Source: Deltaproteobacteria bacterium (GTDB lineage: Bacteria > JAUYMQ01). From it: 7,495 bases of DNA. This document shows, piece after piece, positions 1 through 7,447 of this stretch. Each line of letters starts with the position of its first letter. Within the stretch, counting starts at the first letter, position 1. The notes beneath the pieces were generated by a model. It searched no databases. It was given only the letters and a program-made list of their open reading frames with translations, and had not been told where the DNA came from. The translations under genes were made by a program, and so were the position numbers. The DNA lies in NCBI GenBank assembly GCA_030698575.1, contig JAUYMQ010000052.1, positions 1 to 7,495 on the forward strand. The letters run 5' to 3'.

Positions 1-55
1 CGAAATCCGGCGCCTTCGTCCCGAGGGGCAGCATTGTGGAAGGCGTCATGACCAT
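1..55 (-). CDS. Redoxin (AhpC/TSA, thioredoxin-fold) family protein, N-terminal fragment
   Basis: Only the first 18 codons are inside the window; the gene continues past the left edge. The peptide read from the ATG at 55 is MVMTPSTMLPLGTKAPDF. The element L-P-L-G-T-x-A-P-D-F is the typical opening of peroxiredoxin/thioredoxin-like proteins, just ahead of the first beta strand of the fold. The start is supported by a strong SD, AGGAG, six bases upstream; the ATG at 49 is an in-frame alternative. Proteins of this family reduce peroxides or exchange thiols in the cytoplasm, but the active-site cysteine lies outside the window, so peroxidase and plain thiol-disulfide roles cannot be told apart. 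It follows the LLM oxidoreductase by 54 bp on the same strand and could be cotranscribed with it. A redoxin beside flavin-dependent oxygenases would fit peroxide protection (inference). Confidence 0.6.
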   Translation of the reverse strand, partial: MVMTPSTMLPLGTKAPDF

Positions 56-109: not shown

Positions 110-1123
110 TCATGTCGCAAATACCTCCAGCAGCCGCGTTCTGTAGTGATCCTGCTGCTCGCGGGTCGTGCCGGTGGAGGGGACGACGAGCATGACGGTA
201 TCGAGCAGCCCTTCGCGCTCAGCCACGCCCGCACGCACGCGATCAACGGGCCCGACCGCGCAGAAGGCGTCGACCATTTCGGGCGGGATCGCCTCGAGCG
301 GGTCGCGCCCCCCCTTCTCCTGGATGTCCCGCACCTCGGCCACCACGCCGCCGAAGCCGTGGGCCTCGAAGATCGGATCGTAGATTCGCGCCCAGATGCT
401 GAACAGCAGCGCCCCCGCGCCGATGCGGCGCGCGGCGGCGAGATCGTCGTCGATCACCGTGAAGCACTGGCCGAGGAGCTCCACGTCGCCGCGTTTCCGG
501 TTGGCGCGGGCGAGCCCTTCGTCGAGCCCCGGCAGGACGACTTCCCGGAGATGACGCGGCGAGAAGAGCGGGTTGCCGATGAGTCCGTCCGCCGCCTCGC
601 CGGCCAGCGCCGACATTCGCCGCGGCACCGCGGCGATGTAGACCGGCGGACTCTCCCGGGGTTGCTTCGTCATGCGGGGGAAGAAACGGCGGGCGCGCAC
701 GTGGTAGTGCTTCCCGTCGAACTGGATCTCGCCGCCGTTCGGCGCCTTCTCCATGATGAGGCGCACGACCTTCACGTACTCGCGAAGCTGGCTGAGGGGC
801 TTTCCGTCGTCGCGTCCGGCGTACCAGTTGTTGTTGCGATTGGGATGGGCGACCCCGAGCCCCAGCGTGAAGCGCCCCTCGCTCAGAAGATCGAGATCGA
901 GGGCCGCGAGGGCGAGCATGACGGGGCTGTGCGTGAAAGCCAGATTGATGGCGGTGCCGAGCTTGATGCGCTTCACCGCGGGCGCCAGGGCGGCCAGCGG
1001 AATCATCGCGGCATTGACCAGCTCGCCGTTCCACAGCGAGTCGAACCCCGCATCTTCAATGCGCTTCGCCCACCCGAGCATGGTCTCAAAGTCGCCCGAC
1101 GGCAGGAACGCCGCGTGCTTCAT
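110..1123 (-). CDS. LLM-class (luciferase-like) flavin/F420-dependent oxidoreductase
   Basis: This 337-residue protein has the bacterial luciferase-like TIM-barrel fold. Visible landmarks are the first strand with MKHAAFLPSG, the helix/strand pair ending in AGFDSLWNGE (about residues 25-34), IKLGTAI (53-59), and SEGRFTLGLGV (81-91), the usual family signature. The C-terminal part, with DTVMLVVPS, closes the barrel. Such enzymes use reduced FMN or coenzyme F420 for monooxygenation or hydride transfer on small organic substrates in the cytoplasm; the cofactor cannot be decided here. The length is normal for the family and no damage is seen. The start at 1123 has AAAGG seven bases upstream. It is clearly a different subfamily from the second LLM protein at 4503-5381. 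It lies 105 bp after the SDR gene, with a palindrome and a dispersed repeat between, so it may or may not belong to the same transcript. The substrate is unknown. Confidence 0.9.
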   Translation of the reverse strand: MKHAAFLPSGDFETMLGWAKRIEDAGFDSLWNGELVNAAMIPLAALAPAVKRIKLGTAINLAFTHSPVMLALAALDLDLLSEGRFTLGLGVAHPNRNNNWYAGRDDGKPLSQLREYVKVVRLIMEKAPNGGEIQFDGKHYHVRARRFFPRMTKQPRESPPVYIAAVPRRMSALAGEAADGLIGNPLFSPRHLREVVLPGLDEGLARANRKRGDVELLGQCFTVIDDDLAAARRIGAGALLFSIWARIYDPIFEAHGFGGVVAEVRDIQEKGGRDPLEAIPPEMVDAFCAVGPVDRVRAGVAEREGLLDTVMLVVPSTGTTREQQDHYRTRLLEVFAT

Positions 1124-1137
1124 AGCTCGACCTTTCT

Positions 1138-1159
1138 GAGGCGCCCGGCCGGGCGCCTC
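1138..1159. repeat. Perfect 22-bp GC palindrome
   Basis: Half-site GAGGCGCCCGG is followed directly by its reverse complement, with the centre between 1148 and 1149. It lies just upstream of the SD of the LLM gene at 1123 and directly beside the dispersed repeat at 1167-1199. No T-run follows on either strand, so it is not a canonical intrinsic terminator, although as RNA it would fold very stably. It could be a transcript stabiliser, an attenuating structure in the LLM leader, a dimeric operator, or part of the neighbouring repeat element. Confidence 0.85.
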
Positions 1160-1166
1160 GCCGGGG

Positions 1167-1199
1167 GATTGCTTCGTCGCTCCGCTCCTCGCAATGACA
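1167..1199 (-). repeat. CHCEERSDEAI-type dispersed intergenic repeat
   Basis: On the minus strand the segment begins TGTCATTGCGAGGAG and ends GACGAAGCAATC. This matches from memory a short repeat scattered through intergenic regions of many unrelated bacteria; its spurious translation CHCEERSDEAI appears in many databases and is also readable here on the minus strand. The ends ATTGC/GCAAT form a short inverted repeat. It is non-coding and lies between the SDR and LLM genes. REP/MITE-like origin is likely but not shown here. Confidence 0.85.
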
Positions 1200-1228
1200 T
1201 GCGGGATGAGCGCTGCGCGTGGGGTGGC

Positions 1229-2095
1229 TCAGTCCATCCCGAGGAAGCGCGCCATGAAGCCGTCGAAGAGTCTGTCGCCGAGGAGGCTGGAGAGCGTCTT
1301 CTGGATCTTGGCCTCCTTCCCGACGAGGTAGCGCGTCTTCGGCTTCGGCGACGTGAGCGCGTGCGCGACAACCTCGGCGACCCGCTCGGGAGGCAGCGCG
1401 ATCTTCGACATTTTCTCCGCCGCCTCGGCCAACTTGGTCAGCCCCTTCCCGTACACCCGCAGCGCCTCTTCGGAGAGCGCGGCGAGACTCTCGTTTCCTG
1501 CTTTCTGGCCCTTTTCCCAGATGGGCGTCGCGATAGCGCCGGGTTCGATCAGCGAGACCTGCACGCCGGTGCCGCGCAACTCGCGCCGGAGAGCGTCCGA
1601 GGCTCCTTCCATGGCGTATTTCGAAGCGGCGTAGGGGCCGATGAAGGGGCTCGCCACCCGCCCGCCGATGCTGCTGATGTTGACGATGCGCCCCCTGGCT
1701 TTCCGAAGGAGCGGCAGGAAGGTCTGGGTCACGGCCACGAAGCCGAAGAAGTTCACCTCGAACTGCCGCCGCCATTCGTCCATCGACGTGAACTCGAGAG
1801 GGCCCGAGACGACGATGCCCGCGTTGTTGACGAGGCCCGCGAGCCCGTTCTCGCCCAGCGCGGCGGTGACTTCCTTCGCCGCGGCCGCGATGGAGCCCTC
1901 ATTGGTCACGTCGATCAGGATGGGCGAGAGGCGGTCCGAAGCACCTTCCCGCAGGGCCTCGCCGTCCTGCGCGCGCCGCACCCCCGCGAAGACGCGGAAG
2001 CCCAGCTTGTCGAGATGGTGGGCGGTCGTCCGGCCGATGCCGGTGCTCGCACCCGTGATGACGACGGCGCCTCTGCCGCCTGCTTGATCGCTCAT
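1229..2095 (-). CDS. Classical short-chain dehydrogenase/reductase (SDR)
   Basis: This 288-residue Rossmann-fold oxidoreductase interconverts an alcohol and a ketone or aldehyde using NAD(P)(H). All classical SDR landmarks are visible: TGASTGIG cofactor loop (14-21), D62-V63 contacting adenine, NNAG (90-93), structural N115, catalytic S142 in NISSIGGR, and YAASK with Y155 and K159. Arginines 40-41 at the end of the second strand suggest a preference for NADP (inference). The GFRVFAGVRR segment recalls the retinol/17-beta-hydroxysteroid/3-hydroxybutyrate dehydrogenase side of the family, but the substrate is not determined. The start at 2095 is chosen over longer in-frame starts because AGGAG lies eight bases upstream and the Rossmann strand begins at about residue 10; upstream codons run into the dehalogenase gene. 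It is 28 bp downstream of that gene, so it may oxidise the alcohol made by dehalogenation (inference). Confidence 0.93.
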   Translation of the reverse strand: MSDQAGGRGAVVITGASTGIGRTTAHHLDKLGFRVFAGVRRAQDGEALREGASDRLSPILIDVTNEGSIAAAAKEVTAALGENGLAGLVNNAGIVVSGPLEFTSMDEWRRQFEVNFFGFVAVTQTFLPLLRKARGRIVNISSIGGRVASPFIGPYAASKYAMEGASDALRRELRGTGVQVSLIEPGAIATPIWEKGQKAGNESLAALSEEALRVYGKGLTKLAEAAEKMSKIALPPERVAEVVAHALTSPKPKTRYLVGKEAKIQKTLSSLLGDRLFDGFMARFLGMD

Positions 2096-2123
2096 GGTGA
2101 TGACTCCTCTCGTGTTCGGAATT

Positions 2124-3005
2124 TCAGGTGAGCGATGCGCGCCACTCGGCCACCGCGCGCCCGATCTCGTCCGGAGCGTCTTCCTGGATGAAGTGCAAGC
2201 CCTTGACCGTGATTTCTTTCTGGTGCGGCCAGGTGCGGCAGTACTTCCGCTGCTTCCCGATGAGAATGGTTCCCGGCTCGGCATTGATGAAGAGCTTGGG
2301 CAGGTCGGCCGTCTCGAGCCACTTCCCGTAGTCGAGCACGATCTTCGCAACGTCCTCGGGCTCGCCGTCGATGGGAATCTGACGAGGCCATGTGAGCGTG
2401 GGCCGCCGGCTCTCGCCCGGCTCGAGGTACGGGCGCTTGTACACCGCCATCTCGGCGTCGGTAAGTCCGCGCAGCACCGAGGACGGGAGCACGCGCTCGA
2501 CGAAGACGTTCTTCTGGAGCACGATCTCCTCGCCGGCCTCCGACCGGAAACCCTGGAAGATCTGCCGGGCCATCTCCGGCCAGTCGGCCCAGTTCATGGG
2601 CATAACGATCGCCTCCATGTAGGCGATCCCCTTGACCGCGACGGGGTGGCGCCGCGCCCAGTCGAAGCCGAGGGCGGAGCCCCAGTCATGGATGACGAAG
2701 GTCACGTTCTCGCGCACACCGAGCTTCTCGAGGAGCGCGTCGAGGTATTCGCGATGCTCGACGAAGCGGTACTTGTCCGGCCCGCTGTCGGGCAGCTTCT
2801 CGCTGTCGCCCATGCCGATCAGATCCGGGGCAATGCAGCGCCCGGCCTTCTCGAGGTGCGGAATGACGTTGCGCCACAGATAGGATGAGGTCGGGTTGCC
2901 GTGGAGGAAAACGATGGGATCCCCCTCGCCCGTCTCGACGTAGGCCATCTGCCGGCCGTTCACCTCGATCTTCTTCTTCGGGTAGCGTTCCAGAGCGCTG
3001 ATCAT
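2124..3005 (-). CDS. Haloalkane dehalogenase, HLD-II (LinB-like) subfamily
   Basis: This 293-residue alpha/beta hydrolase hydrolytically cleaves carbon-halogen bonds to give an alcohol, halide and a proton. It aligns almost without gaps to LinB from memory, and the catalytic set is intact: nucleophile D107 in VIHDWGS, halide-binding W108, second halide-binding N37 in HGNPTSS, general acid E131 in YMEAIV, and base H271 in GLHFIQED. This D-H-E triad with Asn-Trp halide binding marks subfamily II. Cap-domain F150 and F168 match LinB F151 and F169, while the tunnel-mouth position LinB L177 is Ser176 here, so substrate preference may differ (inference). The start at 3005 gives the LinB-like N terminus and has AAGGA nine bases upstream; longer in-frame starts would overlap the previous gene. 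No signal peptide is seen, so it is probably cytoplasmic. It is flanked by the DMFase-like gene (49 bp) and the SDR gene (28 bp). Confidence 0.93.
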   Translation of the reverse strand: MISALERYPKKKIEVNGRQMAYVETGEGDPIVFLHGNPTSSYLWRNVIPHLEKAGRCIAPDLIGMGDSEKLPDSGPDKYRFVEHREYLDALLEKLGVRENVTFVIHDWGSALGFDWARRHPVAVKGIAYMEAIVMPMNWADWPEMARQIFQGFRSEAGEEIVLQKNVFVERVLPSSVLRGLTDAEMAVYKRPYLEPGESRRPTLTWPRQIPIDGEPEDVAKIVLDYGKWLETADLPKLFINAEPGTILIGKQRKYCRTWPHQKEITVKGLHFIQEDAPDEIGRAVAEWRASLT

Positions 3006-3054
3006 TGCAGTCGTTCCTTGCCGGCCTTGCCGCCCTTCCCGACGTTGATGAATA

Positions 3055-4485
3055 TCACTGTGATCCGCCGCGCATGCGCGCGAGCAAGTTCTCGGTGATG
3101 CGCTGCAACCGGGGGTCGGGCCCCTTCGGCGAAACGATGTGCTGCGGACGAACGTAGCCTGGAGGTTCGGCGAGGCCGTCCCCCCACCAGCAGGTGGCCG
3201 CGTTGAAAACGATGTTGCCCTTCGCCCCGGGGTAGACGGTGGCCGTGTAGACGCCGTCACCATGCTTGCTCTGCGTCTCGCCGCTGGCCACGACCTCCAG
3301 GCCGCGAATGTCAGCGGGCTCGCCGTGATACTCCCAGCCGACGAGACCCGCGATCCCGTCCCCGTTCCTCATGCCCGTCCCCTCGAAGAGCCAGTGGTCG
3401 GGGGCCGTGCAGATCCAGTCCGCTGATCCCGTCGGCGGCGCCGGCGTGCGGGCGCCCACGAGCCACTTCTCGTCGGGGGCGCTGGCGGGCAGCTGCGCCA
3501 TCTCGGGAAAGACAGCCGTTTCCTCCCGCGACGCGCCGCCGAACCGGTCGGTCCGTGAGAAGACACGGTCCGGCGCGCCGCCGCCGCCCGGCCGAAGACC
3601 GATCTCGCCGCAGCAGACGTTCCCCGAAAGGAACGCCACGTTGAGGCCCGCGGCGATGGCGCCGAGGAGATGATCGTACATGGCGCGCGTGTAGTACTCA
3701 TCATGCCCCACCGAGAGAAAGCCCCGCGCGCGCAAAAGCCCCCCGGGATCCTGGTGTGCGTCGATTCCCGAGATGTAGGTCACGTCGTGACCACGCGACT
3801 CCAGCCAGTATGCCACGGGAAACTCCCACAGCAGCCACTCACCTGAGCCGGTCGACAGCGGCGCGTCGACGAGCTGGCAGTACTTGCCGTAGGGACGGTC
3901 GAAGCTCACCGCCGTGTCGGGGCCCCAGTACCAGAACTTCTTCCCGTCGTCATACAGCGCGTAGCTGTCGGGCCAGCGGTTGTAGGCCTGCCAGGTGAGA
4001 TCGGAGCACTGAAAGATGAAATCCGCCGGCCGGTCGTCGCGAACGACGAAGATGACATAGCTCTGATCGCCGCTCGGCCCGGCCGTGAGCTTTCCGAGGT
4101 AGACGCCGCTCGGCCAGTCGGCGGGGATCTCGATGCCGGCGCAGGCATTCCACCTGCACTCGCGCAGCCGCATGGGTCCGACGGGCGGGTCGGGCTGGAC
4201 CTCGCCCGTGAAGGGACCGAGCCGCAGCATGTGCCGTCCTCCGGCGCCGCCGTAGTAACCCATGCGGTAGAGGTCGAGCGTGAAAGGCGAGGGCGGGTTG
4301 GTGCTGACGTGGAACGAGATCGACTCACCGGGACGGACGCTCTGGCGGGAGCAGAATCCTTCGATCGATGACGACCGGAAGCGTGCGCCTGGATCGATGC
4401 GCGTCTTCCGAAGGATCCACTCCTCTGTTCCTGGCCGCGCGTTCTCCTCGCGGATCAGATCGGGTCGGGGGGGAATTGAACTCAT
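3055..4485 (-). CDS. N,N-dimethylformamidase large-subunit-like protein (stand-alone)
   Basis: This 476-residue protein resembles the C-terminal part of the large (beta) subunit of N,N-dimethylformamidase, an iron enzyme that hydrolyses the amide bond of dimethylformamide. Diagnostic stretches are YRMGYYGGAGGR (73-84), closing a beta-sandwich region, then DLTWQAYNRWPD (162-173), GHDVTYIS (232-239), SVGHDEYYT (258-266), AFLSGN (284-289) and VGWEYHGE (382-389). The known enzyme uses two Tyr and one Glu as iron ligands. Candidates here are Y226, Y264/Y265 and E385, but this assignment is inference. The known large subunit is about 760 residues and pairs with a small subunit; this protein is much shorter and no small-subunit gene is seen nearby. 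No signal peptide is visible. The start at 4485 lies 17 bp after the LLM stop; its nearest SD-like sequence (GAGGA) is unusually distant, suggesting translational coupling. The true substrate may be another amide or a non-amide. Confidence 0.85.
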   Translation of the reverse strand: MSSIPPRPDLIREENARPGTEEWILRKTRIDPGARFRSSSIEGFCSRQSVRPGESISFHVSTNPPSPFTLDLYRMGYYGGAGGRHMLRLGPFTGEVQPDPPVGPMRLRECRWNACAGIEIPADWPSGVYLGKLTAGPSGDQSYVIFVVRDDRPADFIFQCSDLTWQAYNRWPDSYALYDDGKKFWYWGPDTAVSFDRPYGKYCQLVDAPLSTGSGEWLLWEFPVAYWLESRGHDVTYISGIDAHQDPGGLLRARGFLSVGHDEYYTRAMYDHLLGAIAAGLNVAFLSGNVCCGEIGLRPGGGGAPDRVFSRTDRFGGASREETAVFPEMAQLPASAPDEKWLVGARTPAPPTGSADWICTAPDHWLFEGTGMRNGDGIAGLVGWEYHGEPADIRGLEVVASGETQSKHGDGVYTATVYPGAKGNIVFNAATCWWGDGLAEPPGYVRPQHIVSPKGPDPRLQRITENLLARMRGGSQ

Positions 4486-4502
4486 CTTGTCAGGGCGCTT
4501 CC

Positions 4503-5381
4503 TCAGAGAGAGCGCGCGGGCTCCACGATCGTCTCAGCAAGTTTGTCCAGCGTCGGCTCGATCAGCTCGGTTGTGGGCAGCATGACGAGCAGGATGACCT
4601 GATCCACCCCGGCCGCCGCGTAGCGCTTCACCTTGTCGAGATCGACGGTTTTCATGTAGGGGCAGATGCTGATCTCGACGTCGCTCAGGGCGCGGCCCCG
4701 CTCGACCAGGAGCCGCTCGAGCTTCTCGAGGCGCTCCTCCGTTTCATCCGGCTCGAGGCCGAAGCCGTACCAGCCATGGCCGAGGTCAGCCACGCGCCGG
4801 AGCGCTGCGTCGCTCTCGCCGCCGAAGTGAATCGGCGGGTATGGATCCTGAACGGGCTTGGGATACATGCGGCAGGCCGGAAGCTCGTAGAACTCGTCCT
4901 TGTATTCCGAGACCGCGTCGCACCAGAGAGTCTTCATGACCTCGATGTAGGATCGGCAGCGCTCGGCGCGCCGCTCGAAGGGCATCTGGAGCGCCCGGAA
5001 CTCCTCGGCGAGCCAGCCGACGCCGATGCCCATGTCGAAGCGGCCGTTCGAAAGGTAGTCGAGCGTGGCGGCGTCTTTCGCGGTGTAGACCGGGCTGCGC
5101 TGCGGGAGCAGGCAGATCCCCGTGCCGAGCCGGATGCTGCGCGTCACGGCGGCCACGTAGGAAAGCGTCACGAAGGGGTCCATGAGGCCCGACTCACCCG
5201 AGGCCGGAAACTTCCCGTCGGGTGAGTAGGGGTACTTCGACTGGTAGTGATCGAAAAGAACGACGTGCTCGGCTGCCCAGAGGGAATGGAAGCCGCGCTG
5301 CTCGGCCGCCGGGCCGAGGGTCTGGATGTACTCACCCGTTGCCCAGGGGCTGCTGAATGGGGGAAAGATGCCGATCTTCAT
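4503..5381 (-). CDS. LLM-class F420-dependent oxidoreductase, Rv2161c-like
   Basis: This 292-residue luciferase-fold protein resembles the group annotated as probable F420-dependent oxidoreductases of the Rv2161c type. Visible features are MKIGIFPPFS at the first strand, RGFHSLWAAEHVV (29-41), a YPYSPDGKFP insert (50-59) typical of that group, IRLGTGI (83-89), and the signature SNGRFDMGIGVGW (111-123) followed by LAEEF. The C-terminal strand has GVDQVILLVMLP. The expected role is cytoplasmic hydride transfer or monooxygenation with F420 or reduced flavin; the cofactor is inferred from family resemblance only. The start at 5381 is well supported by AAGGAG eight bases upstream, and longer in-frame starts lie inside the preceding hydrolase gene. 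It begins 19 bp after that gene stops and ends 17 bp before the DMFase-like gene, so the three are very likely cotranscribed. The substrate is unknown. Confidence 0.92.
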   Translation of the reverse strand: MKIGIFPPFSSPWATGEYIQTLGPAAEQRGFHSLWAAEHVVLFDHYQSKYPYSPDGKFPASGESGLMDPFVTLSYVAAVTRSIRLGTGICLLPQRSPVYTAKDAATLDYLSNGRFDMGIGVGWLAEEFRALQMPFERRAERCRSYIEVMKTLWCDAVSEYKDEFYELPACRMYPKPVQDPYPPIHFGGESDAALRRVADLGHGWYGFGLEPDETEERLEKLERLLVERGRALSDVEISICPYMKTVDLDKVKRYAAAGVDQVILLVMLPTTELIEPTLDKLAETIVEPARSL

Positions 5382-5400
5382 GCCGCCGCTCCTTCCGGTA

Positions 5401-6282
5401 TCAGTCCGCCAGGAACTCGCTGACGTACTCGAGGAACAAATCGAGCTGATCGTGGTGCACCCAGTGTCCCGCGTCGTCGACGTTGACCACGCGCGCGTTC
5501 CGGAACGCCTGGACCCTGCCGTCGGCTTCGGGATCGCTCGCCCAGCTCTCCTTGCCGCGGAACAAAAGGGTGGGACATGCGATGCGTCCCCAGAGTTCGT
5601 TCGCCTCCTCGACATTGAAGTGATCCGACGAGAAGACCCGCACGTAGTTGTCGAACTTCCAGGAATAGGTGCCGTCCTCGTTCTGCGTGGTTCCGTGTCG
5701 GGTGAGATGGCGCGCCTGCTCGGGCGTCAGGTGCGGGTTGGCGTCCTGCATCCGCGCGCAGGCCTCGTCGAGATTCTTGTAGCGGCGCGGCAGCCTTCCC
5801 GCGAGGTCGCGCACGGTGTCAATCCAGCCGCCGATTCGCTCCTGCGGCGATCTCTTCACCCGCTCGGCGACCATCTTGGGCGACGGCCCGAGCCCCTCGA
5901 TAGCCACCAGCCGGTGCACGTTCTCGGGGTAGAGGCCGGAGTAACGGAGCGCGATGGCGCCCCCGAGCGAGTGGCTCACGATGCGCACCGGAAAGAGCTG
6001 CTTCTGGTGCAGGAGCTGGGCGATGTCGTAGACGTAGTCGTCCATGCGATAGGTGCTGCCGATGACCCACTGCGAGTCACCGTGGCCGCGGAGATCGGGG
6101 GCGATGATGTGATACTCGTCGCGGAGCGCCTGGGCGACCCAGTCCCAGTTGCGACAGTGATCCTGCCCCCCGTGAACGAGCAGGAGCGGGGGCGCGCCCT
6201 CGTTCCCCCAGTCGACGTAGTGGAGCCGGAGGCGCTGCGAGTAATAGACGTGAGAAGTGGGTCCCGCGATGGGCGTCGGCAT
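5401..6282 (-). CDS. Alpha/beta-fold hydrolase (serine nucleophile)
   Basis: This 293-residue protein has a full alpha/beta hydrolase fold. Visible are HGG (37-39) of the oxyanion region, APDLRGHGDS (61-70), nucleophile elbow SHSLGG with Ser105, and base His273 in DDAGHWVHHD. The acid is probably E245 or D250 in the segment after LLFRGKE, but this is not settled by eye. Unlike the neighbour at 2124-3005 it has Ser rather than Asp as nucleophile and lacks the Asn/Trp halide site, so it is an esterase, lactonase, C-C hydrolase or similar rather than a dehalogenase. The cap region carries ERVKRSPQERIGGWID. No signal peptide is visible. The start at 6282 has AGGA seven bases upstream. It is the first gene of the minus-strand operon, so the operon promoter should lie in 6283-6450. 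The substrate cannot be assigned. Confidence 0.92.
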   Translation of the reverse strand: MPTPIAGPTSHVYYSQRLRLHYVDWGNEGAPPLLLVHGGQDHCRNWDWVAQALRDEYHIIAPDLRGHGDSQWVIGSTYRMDDYVYDIAQLLHQKQLFPVRIVSHSLGGAIALRYSGLYPENVHRLVAIEGLGPSPKMVAERVKRSPQERIGGWIDTVRDLAGRLPRRYKNLDEACARMQDANPHLTPEQARHLTRHGTTQNEDGTYSWKFDNYVRVFSSDHFNVEEANELWGRIACPTLLFRGKESWASDPEADGRVQAFRNARVVNVDDAGHWVHHDQLDLFLEYVSEFLAD

Positions 6283-6546: not shown

Positions 6547-6559
6547 TGGGAGGGGATTG

Positions 6560-7447
6560 ATGATGCTGATGATGAAGGGCGCGATCGGAAGCCTCGTAAG
6601 CGTGCCGGGCGTGTTGCTACTCGTTCTGATGTCGATTGGCTGCGGGTTCTCGGACATCCGAACGGAGCGCGTGAAGGCGGGCCTCACGCAGGAAGACGCC
6701 TCCCGCGGGCGGGCCATCCTGGAGGCCGCAATGGAGAAGAGCGGTGGCATCGCCGCCTGGAAGGCGCACCGAACCGCCGAGGCGACGATGAGGGACGACT
6801 GGCCGAGCATGTTCATGCGGCCGTTCTTCATGCCCTGGCCCGAGAACAAGGCGCCGATCCGGTTCCAGTTCCTCCTCGGGACGAACGCCTCACGTCTCGA
6901 ATTCCTGGAGGGTTCCCGCCAGGGCGAGATCTGGGGAATCCAGAACTGGTCCACCTACGAACAACGGGCTGGAGAGCCGAGCCGGTTCGAGAAAAACGCC
7001 GACGCGCAATTCTTCCTTCCCACCTTCCAGTGGTTCTTTGAAGCGCCCTTCCGGCTCCCCTATGCCGACATCGTCACCTATGCCGGCGAGGGGAGCGCCG
7101 CCGGGCGCGTCTATGATCTCGTCTTCGCGACCTGGAACAAGCCCGAACCGCAGGAGAAGATCGACCAGTACCTCGTGTGGGTGAACCAGGAAACGGGCCT
7201 CATCGACTTCCTTCAATACACCGTGCGCGACATGATGAGATTCGCCCGCGGCACCATGCAGTTCACGGATTACCGGGACGTGCAGGGGATCAAAGTCGCC
7301 TTCAATCAGACGGTCGTGCTGGAGGATGAGCCGGACGGTACGCGCATTCTGCACCAGGTCATTCTGAGCGACGTGAACTTCGGCGTGGACATTCCCCGGG
7401 GGGCCTTCTATCCCGACCCCGCGGTTCGCGCGGCCAAGCACAACTAA
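6560..7447 (+). CDS. Putative lipoprotein, LolA/LppX-like fold suspected
   Basis: This 295-residue protein has a short N region with one Lys (K6), a hydrophobic stretch about residues 12-26 (VPGVLLLVLMSIG) and a candidate lipobox ending at Cys28. The -3 residue is Ser rather than Leu, so lipidation is likely but not ideal. The mature part begins with an Ala/Glu-rich helix, then KSGGIAAWKAHRTAEATM, and later alternating strands including QYLVWVNQETGLIDFLQY and FTDYRDVQGIKVAFNQTV. This strand pattern, with D-Y-R-x-V-x-G-I, recalls outer-membrane lipoprotein carriers of the LolA/LppX type and related uncharacterised lipoproteins, which bind hydrophobic ligands in a half-barrel. The assignment is inference. 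The start at 6560 is preferred to TTG at 6557 and later ATGs because GGAGG lies six bases upstream. It is transcribed away from the catabolic genes, possibly for export or binding of a lipid-like substrate. Confidence 0.8.
   Translation: MMLMMKGAIGSLVSVPGVLLLVLMSIGCGFSDIRTERVKAGLTQEDASRGRAILEAAMEKSGGIAAWKAHRTAEATMRDDWPSMFMRPFFMPWPENKAPIRFQFLLGTNASRLEFLEGSRQGEIWGIQNWSTYEQRAGEPSRFEKNADAQFFLPTFQWFFEAPFRLPYADIVTYAGEGSAAGRVYDLVFATWNKPEPQEKIDQYLVWVNQETGLIDFLQYTVRDMMRFARGTMQFTDYRDVQGIKVAFNQTVVLEDEPDGTRILHQVILSDVNFGVDIPRGAFYPDPAVRAAKHN

What the first reader, a model, noticed from the sequence alone, without database searches (positions are those of the whole stretch)
110..6282. Candidate undescribed catabolic operon combining dehalogenase, DMFase-like protein, two LLM oxidoreductases, SDR and hydrolase
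Six complete same-strand genes, five of them 17-49 bp apart, encode enzymes that could act in sequence on a halogenated and/or amide-containing compound: C-X hydrolysis (HLD-II), alcohol oxidation (SDR), C-N hydrolysis (DMFase-like), flavin/F420 redox steps (two LLM) and ester or C-C hydrolysis. I know of no described pathway with this gene set. The families are well established; the pathway is inference.
Basis: partly seen in the sequence, partly recalled or inferred. Interest (0 to 1): 0.7.

Follow-up and report, generated by a model that had tools for sequence, protein, structure and literature searches.

The report
Private cluster of known catabolic enzymes
Six neighbouring genes in an uncultured bacterium encode well-known kinds of degradative enzymes, and five probably form one operon, but none of the roughly one hundred loci examined around their relatives in other bacteria (none of them close kin of the host) repeats the set, so the proposed new degradation pathway remains a guess.

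Summary
In detail: six intact minus-strand genes lie at the stated place, in the stated families, with gaps of 19, 17, 49, 28 and 105 bp. The first five are a likely operon. The sixth (LLM2) is set off by 105 bp holding a genome-wide interspersed repeat and a perfect 22-bp palindrome, so its membership is doubtful.

HLD is a LinB/DmbA-type subfamily II haloalkane dehalogenase with all five catalytic residues. The 'DMFase-like' protein has the dimethylformamidase fold without its pentraxin domain (Z about 31) and keeps Y399, H519, E521 and N547. Its nearest relatives are mostly Tat-exported proteins of Planctomycetota and Verrucomicrobiota; here it cannot carry a signal peptide and was probably acquired by horizontal transfer. 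The host encodes F420 biosynthesis genes.

The pathway claim is weak. None of 80 DMFase-like loci, nor the HLD, LLM1 and ABH loci examined, contains the combination. Where HLD and ABH orthologues of 64-72% identity share a genome they lie far apart. No other genome of the host's phylum was available, so conservation among close kin is untested.

Verdict: a plausible, apparently private catabolic operon of known families, with no demonstrated joint substrate.

The parts
5401..6282 (-). ABH: alpha/beta hydrolase, first gene of the run; Ser in HSLGG (S105), His in DAGHW (H273)
   Evidence: ORF; Pfam PF00561/PF12697; motifs; relatives 58% in a Sphingomonas plasmid, about 64-66% in G094/G233/G363
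4503..5381 (-). LLM1: luciferase-like oxidoreductase, TIGR03619 (Rv2161c-type, predicted F420-dependent)
   Evidence: TIGR03619 251.6 bits, cut-off 166.9; F420 biosynthesis genes in the genome
3055..4485 (-). DMFase-like short-form amidohydrolase (DMFA2_C), no room for a signal peptide
   Evidence: PF20254; AlphaFold model pLDDT 92.6; Z about 31 to 8i59/6lvb; iron-site residues by alignment; in-frame stop 16 codons upstream of the ATG
2124..3005 (-). HLD: haloalkane dehalogenase, subfamily II, LinB/DmbA type; pentad N37, D107, W108, E131, H271
   Evidence: NF002938; alignment to 7pw1 and 6s06; motif positions; pentad defined in PMC8584953
1229..2095 (-). SDR: classical short-chain dehydrogenase (GASTGIG, NNAG, YAASK)
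   Evidence: PF00106; motifs
1160..1206 (-). interspersed repeat between SDR and LLM2
   Evidence: 62 further matches in the own genome, all to query positions about 1152-1229
1138..1159 (.). perfect 22-bp palindrome GAGGCGCCCGGCCGGGCGCCTC next to the repeat
   Evidence: 0 in 200 shuffles
110..1123 (-). LLM2: luciferase-like oxidoreductase nearest TIGR03617; membership of the operon doubtful
   Evidence: PF00296 187.9 bits; below every NCBIfam cut-off

Best explanation
A locally assembled catabolic operon of five genes (ABH, LLM1, DMFase-like, HLD, SDR), perhaps followed by a separate LLM2 unit, that widens the range of small organic compounds the host can use. Shown from sequence: five intact genes packed 17-49 bp apart, an HLD with a complete subfamily II active site, a DMFA2-fold protein with the iron-site residues that could be mapped, and a host with F420 biosynthesis genes. 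Inferred: HLD converts haloalkanes to alcohols plus halide; SDR oxidises an alcohol or reduces a carbonyl; the DMFase-like protein hydrolyses an amide with a mononuclear iron centre; LLM1 carries out an F420-dependent redox step; ABH hydrolyses an ester, lactone or C-C bond. Most likely these enzymes share expression but do not form one dedicated linear pathway. The DMFase-like gene probably came from Planctomycetota or Verrucomicrobiota and lost its Tat signal, so it would act in the cytoplasm.
For: Gene anatomy. HLD 444.6 bits to the haloalkane dehalogenase equivalog, nearest solved relatives AncLinB-DmbA and LinB, pentad as in PMC8584953. DMFase-like: Z 30.7-31.4 over 385-391 residues to dimethylformamidase and N-acetyl-(R)-beta-phenylalanine acylase; Y399, H519, E521, N547 map to Y168, H261, E263, N289 (functions from PMC7686228). 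Tree places it beside a Planctomycetota sequence (100/93) inside a mixed Planctomycetota-Verrucomicrobiota set (97/83); 52 of 68 homologues carry an RR-type signal by a crude motif. F420: CofD with an adjacent CofC-like ORF, and CofH matches above cut-off, one in an 805-aa frame. ABH relatives on plasmids lie among other catabolic genes.
Against: No conserved neighbourhood in any locus examined, so shared function is not supported by comparative evidence. No promoter was recognised by the consensus scan, no transcript data exist, no regulator or transporter is in the window. In G094 and G233 the HLD sits with a different LLM, not with the other partners. No gene for handling the products of dehalogenation (aldehyde dehydrogenase, haloacid dehalogenase) is present in the window.
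Confidence: 0.55

Rival explanations
1. A dedicated pathway: the enzymes act in sequence on one halogenated and amide-containing substrate: HLD removes halogen, SDR oxidises the alcohol, DMFase-like cleaves the amide, LLM1 and ABH complete the degradation.
For: Co-directional packing; motifs of the enzymes look intact; gene classes are chemically compatible (inference).
Against: The set is not repeated in any of the loci examined; HLD and ABH orthologues are unlinked where they co-occur; DMFase-like relatives live in an unrelated, exported context.
Confidence: 0.12
2. Chance proximity: unrelated metabolic genes packed in a compact stretch and transcribed together or partly, without any shared substrate class.
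For: No conservation; LLM, SDR and alpha/beta hydrolase are large, common families; the DMFase-like gene looks like an arrival by transfer; a repeat element lies in the last junction.
Against: Five co-directional degradative-type genes with gaps of 17-49 bp, and two of about 14 LLM genes of the genome in one 6-kb stretch, is more than random placement would usually give.
Confidence: 0.23
3. The HLD is not used for haloalkanes in this host but acts on another natural substrate, the operon serving lipid or natural-product turnover.
For: Physiological substrates of many HLDs are unknown (own knowledge); no further steps of haloalkane use are in the window.
Against: Close similarity to LinB/DmbA and a complete pentad predict real dehalogenase activity.
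Confidence: 0.1

Closest known systems
LinB / DmbA haloalkane dehalogenases (HLD-II)
   Same: About 64% identity to LinB on Sphingobium and Sphingomonas plasmids; catalytic pentad conserved
   Different: Not accompanied by recognised lin genes in the window; a general SDR, not compared with LinC here, follows it
Dimethylformamidase large subunit (Paracoccus, 6lvb) and N-acetyl-(R)-beta-phenylalanine acylase (8huy)
   Same: Same overall fold for domains I and III (Z about 31); mapped iron-site and catalytic residues kept
   Different: 476 aa instead of about 760-775; pentraxin domain II (residues 74-337 in PMC7686228) missing; no small-subunit gene seen in the window; about 22% identity
Short DMFA2_C proteins of Planctomycetota and Verrucomicrobiota (uncharacterised)
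   Same: 50-71% identity, same length of the catalytic part
   Different: Those examined mostly carry a Tat-type signal, and 16 of 72 loci have a DUF7133/HEAT/cytochrome c-type neighbour; this one has no signal and sits in another gene context
Haloalkane utilisation operon of Rhodococcus (dhaA-adhA-aldA; own knowledge)
   Same: A dehalogenase next to an alcohol/carbonyl dehydrogenase
   Different: No aldehyde dehydrogenase or regulator in the window; other genes differ

Membership tests
Haloalkane dehalogenase subfamily II (HLD-II) | Catalytic pentad: Asp, His, Glu with Asn and Trp as halide-stabilising residues | tested here: met
   N37, D107, W108, E131, H271, aligned to 7pw1, pentad from PMC8584953
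Haloalkane dehalogenase subfamily II (HLD-II) | Hydrolytic dehalogenase activity on haloalkanes | not testable with these tools
   Needs an assay
Dimethylformamidase | DMFA2 fold of domains I and III | tested here: met
   VIA-align Z 30.7-31.3, 385-390 residues, to 6lvb/6lvd/6lve
Dimethylformamidase | Mononuclear iron ligands Y399, Y440, E521 and catalytic H519, N547, E657 | tested here: inconclusive
   Y399, H519, E521, N547 map to Y168, H261, E263, N289; Y440 and E657 could not be aligned; invariant Y199 and E385 are candidates
Dimethylformamidase | Large subunit with pentraxin domain II | tested here: not met
   Protein is 476 aa; the profile alignment jumps from about residue 40 to 336 of the large subunit, and only 385-390 of 762 residues align in 3D; domain limits
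Dimethylformamidase | Partner small subunit (15 kDa) encoded nearby | tested here: inconclusive
   No room for a further gene of that size between the six genes (gaps up to 105 bp) or in the 274-bp divergent region, but the contig ends just beyond, and the rest of the genome was not searched
F420-dependent LLM oxidoreductase TIGR03619 (Rv2161c type), LLM1 | Score above curated cut-off | tested here: met
   251.6 against 166.9 bits
F420-dependent LLM oxidoreductase TIGR03619 (Rv2161c type), LLM1 | Host able to make F420 | tested here: inconclusive
   CofH matches above cut-off, CofD match with a CofC-like ORF beside it; CofE/FbiB not searched
F420-dependent LLM oxidoreductase TIGR03619 (Rv2161c type), LLM1 | Use of F420 rather than FMN | not testable with these tools
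   Needs an assay
Conserved catabolic operon | Same gene set together in relatives | tested here: inconclusive
   Absent in every locus examined, but no other genome of the host's phylum was held

The most novel reading that the evidence does not exclude
A dedicated, undescribed cytoplasmic pathway in a sparsely sampled uncultured phylum that degrades a halogenated amide, using an HLD, an iron amidohydrolase recruited from the exported DMFA2 family of Planctomycetota and Verrucomicrobiota, and an F420-dependent oxidoreductase.
Probability: 0.08. Interest if true: 0.6.

Novelty: new member of a known kind. Interest (0 to 1): 0.25.

Why it matters
If a real pathway, it would link dehalogenation, amide cleavage and F420 chemistry in one unit of an uncultured lineage. 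As it stands it is mainly a pointer to two testable enzymes: a new LinB-type dehalogenase and a short, signal-less member of a widespread but uncharacterised DMFA2 family, whose activity could show whether the iron amidohydrolase works without the pentraxin domain and small subunit.

Tried and rejected
Looked for the cluster in viral contigs by LLM1: nothing. Searched plasmids for DMFase-like, ABH, SDR, HLD, LLM1 and LLM2; of these only three ABH plasmid loci were opened and none repeats the set. Tried to align Y440 and E657 of dimethylformamidase with a shorter query; only the acylase aligned, over the H-E-N part. Consensus scan found no promoter, and terminator-like sites only within genes, no more than in shuffles. 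Rfam found nothing. An LLM-HLD pair in G094 and G233 was considered as evidence for a conserved link and set aside: two sister genomes, only about 30% identity to LLM2, and genomes very rich in LLM candidates. Binatota was considered because all its genomes are reported to carry dhaA (PMC8262859), but the host phylum could not be named.

Full report
The six genes are real. On the minus strand, in order of transcription, the window encodes ABH 5401-6282, LLM1 4503-5381, a DMFase-like protein 3055-4485, HLD 2124-3005, SDR 1229-2095 and LLM2 110-1123. The gaps are 19, 17, 49, 28 and 105 bp. The contig ends with the window on both sides, so the run cannot be followed further; a start codon at 55 on the minus strand opens a frame reading MVMTPSTMLPLGTKAPDF, possibly a redoxin, cut by the contig end (the family is my reading, not tested).

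The first five genes are a good operon candidate; the sixth is doubtful. The 105-bp gap before LLM2 holds a repeat (about 1160-1206) that gives 62 further matches in the genome, often as neighbouring copies on opposite strands, and a perfect 22-bp palindrome at 1138-1159. The repeat also ties the contig to the rest of the assembly. The consensus scan found no promoter and terminator-like sites only inside genes, at no more than the shuffled number, so transcription is inferred from spacing alone.

HLD is a subfamily II haloalkane dehalogenase by sequence. It scores 444.6 bits against the equivalog cut-off of 241; the nearest solved structures are AncLinB-DmbA (7pw1) and LinB; plasmid-borne LinB is about 64% identical. 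N37, D107, W108, E131 and H271 correspond to the pentad described for AncLinB-DmbA (PMC8584953). Activity was not tested.

The DMFase-like protein is a short form. Its AlphaFold model (mean pLDDT 92.6) matches dimethylformamidase and N-acetyl-(R)-beta-phenylalanine acylase at Z about 31 over 385-391 residues; the next entry scores 15.3. The dimethylformamidase large subunit has an Ig-like domain I, a pentraxin domain II (74-337) and a catalytic domain III (PMC7686228); domain II is missing here. By profile alignment, with positions counted by me, Y399, H519, E521 and N547 fall on Y168, H261, E263 and N289; in that paper Y399, Y440 and E521 bind iron, and the Y440A, E521A, H519A, N547A and E657A changes abolish activity. 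Y440 and E657 could not be placed; Y199 and E385 are invariant in 33 homologues and are candidates. The dimethylformamidase large subunit is inactive without its small subunit; none is seen in the window, and the rest of the genome was not searched for one. A substrate other than dimethylformamide is therefore the better guess (inference).

Its origin is probably horizontal. Most of the 80 loci found by sequence are Planctomycetota or Verrucomicrobiota, the rest Bacteroidota, Hydrogenedentota, Acidobacteria and a few others; a search of 145 genomes spread over other families found only five with a match, the best 48% identical. In an 80-row tree the window protein pairs with a Planctomycetota sequence (100/93) inside a mixed set of Planctomycetota and Verrucomicrobiota (97/83), on a longer end branch than its neighbour, 0.46 against 0.16. 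A crude motif finds a Tat-like RR in the N-terminal extension of 52 of 68 homologues; at least two of those hits are unreliable because the extension was cut at the wrong place, and several of the others also show an RR that the motif did not accept. Here a stop lies in frame 16 codons upstream of the start, leaving no room for a signal. Caveat: the host's phylum is unnamed, so a relationship to that group cannot be excluded.

Host background. The genome (4.13 Mb, 653 contigs, completeness 91.6%) is the only one of its phylum held. It has about 14 LLM genes, two above-cut-off CofH matches, one in an 805-aa frame that also shows weaker CofH-like segments and may be a fused FbiC, and a CofD match followed by a CofC-like ORF (the CofC reading is mine). 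CofE was not searched. F420 use by LLM1 is thus plausible but not shown.

Conservation was tested from four of the genes. DMFase-like: 80 loci with up to 10 kb on each side, some cut short by contig ends, none with HLD or LLM at E 1e-8; a few weak SDR or ABH family matches only. HLD: eight loci of 55-72% identity, most 20 kb, none with DMFase-like, LLM1 or ABH orthologues; weak SDR family matches, and an LLM of about 30% identity directly upstream of HLD in two sister genomes, G094 and G233. LLM1: fourteen loci of 9-20 kb, fetched and compared, none with the partners beyond weak SDR or LLM family matches. ABH: four genome loci and three plasmid loci, none with the partners beyond weak SDR matches. 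In G363 HLD and ABH are on different contigs, in G094 about 407 kb apart and in G233 about 1.73 Mb apart. LLM2 and SDR were searched only in plasmids, and the matching plasmid records for HLD, LLM1, LLM2, SDR and DMFase-like were not opened.

Literature. In the open-licence papers held, none contains both haloalkane dehalogenase and dimethylformamidase, none both dimethylformamidase and Planctomycetes, and the one paper that mentions haloalkane dehalogenase, a luciferase-like monooxygenase and gene clusters is a Lysinibacillus genome description that I did not read beyond the start of its abstract. Subscription papers are not covered.

Conclusion. The anatomy is confirmed, the enzyme predictions are good, the joint pathway is not supported by comparison and stays possible only because the host's own phylum could not be sampled. 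I rate the finding as an ordinary, apparently private catabolic operon with one mildly unusual member.

Noticed in passing
window 1160-1206 and many places in G000: An interspersed repeat with 62 other matches in the genome, many as neighbouring copies on opposite strands (for example C490 3244-3294 minus and 3303-3349 plus), resembling a REP/BIME-type family.
   Followed up: partly
window 1138-1159: Perfect 22-bp palindrome directly beside the repeat, between SDR and LLM2.
   Followed up: partly
L010-L089: A widespread family of short DMFA2_C proteins in Planctomycetota and Verrucomicrobiota, mostly with Tat-like signals; in 16 of 72 loci a nearby gene belongs to a cluster whose seven scanned members carry DUF7133, HEAT and mostly cytochrome c domains. 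Function unknown.
   Followed up: partly
L116 9112-11007 and L117 8518-10337: In two sister genomes (G233, G094) an LLM gene ends 11-12 bp upstream of a LinB-type HLD gene on the same strand.
   Followed up: partly
window 1-55, minus strand: Start of a cut-off ORF (MVMTPSTMLPLGTKAPDF), possibly a redoxin, 54 bp after LLM2.
   Followed up: no
window 6557-7447, plus strand: Divergent gene matching the LBF_0142 lipoprotein family below its cut-off (132 against 250 bits), with no Pfam match.
   Followed up: no
L141 (G000:C202): 805-aa open frame with a full CofH match and weaker CofH-like segments upstream, possibly a fused FbiC.
   Followed up: no
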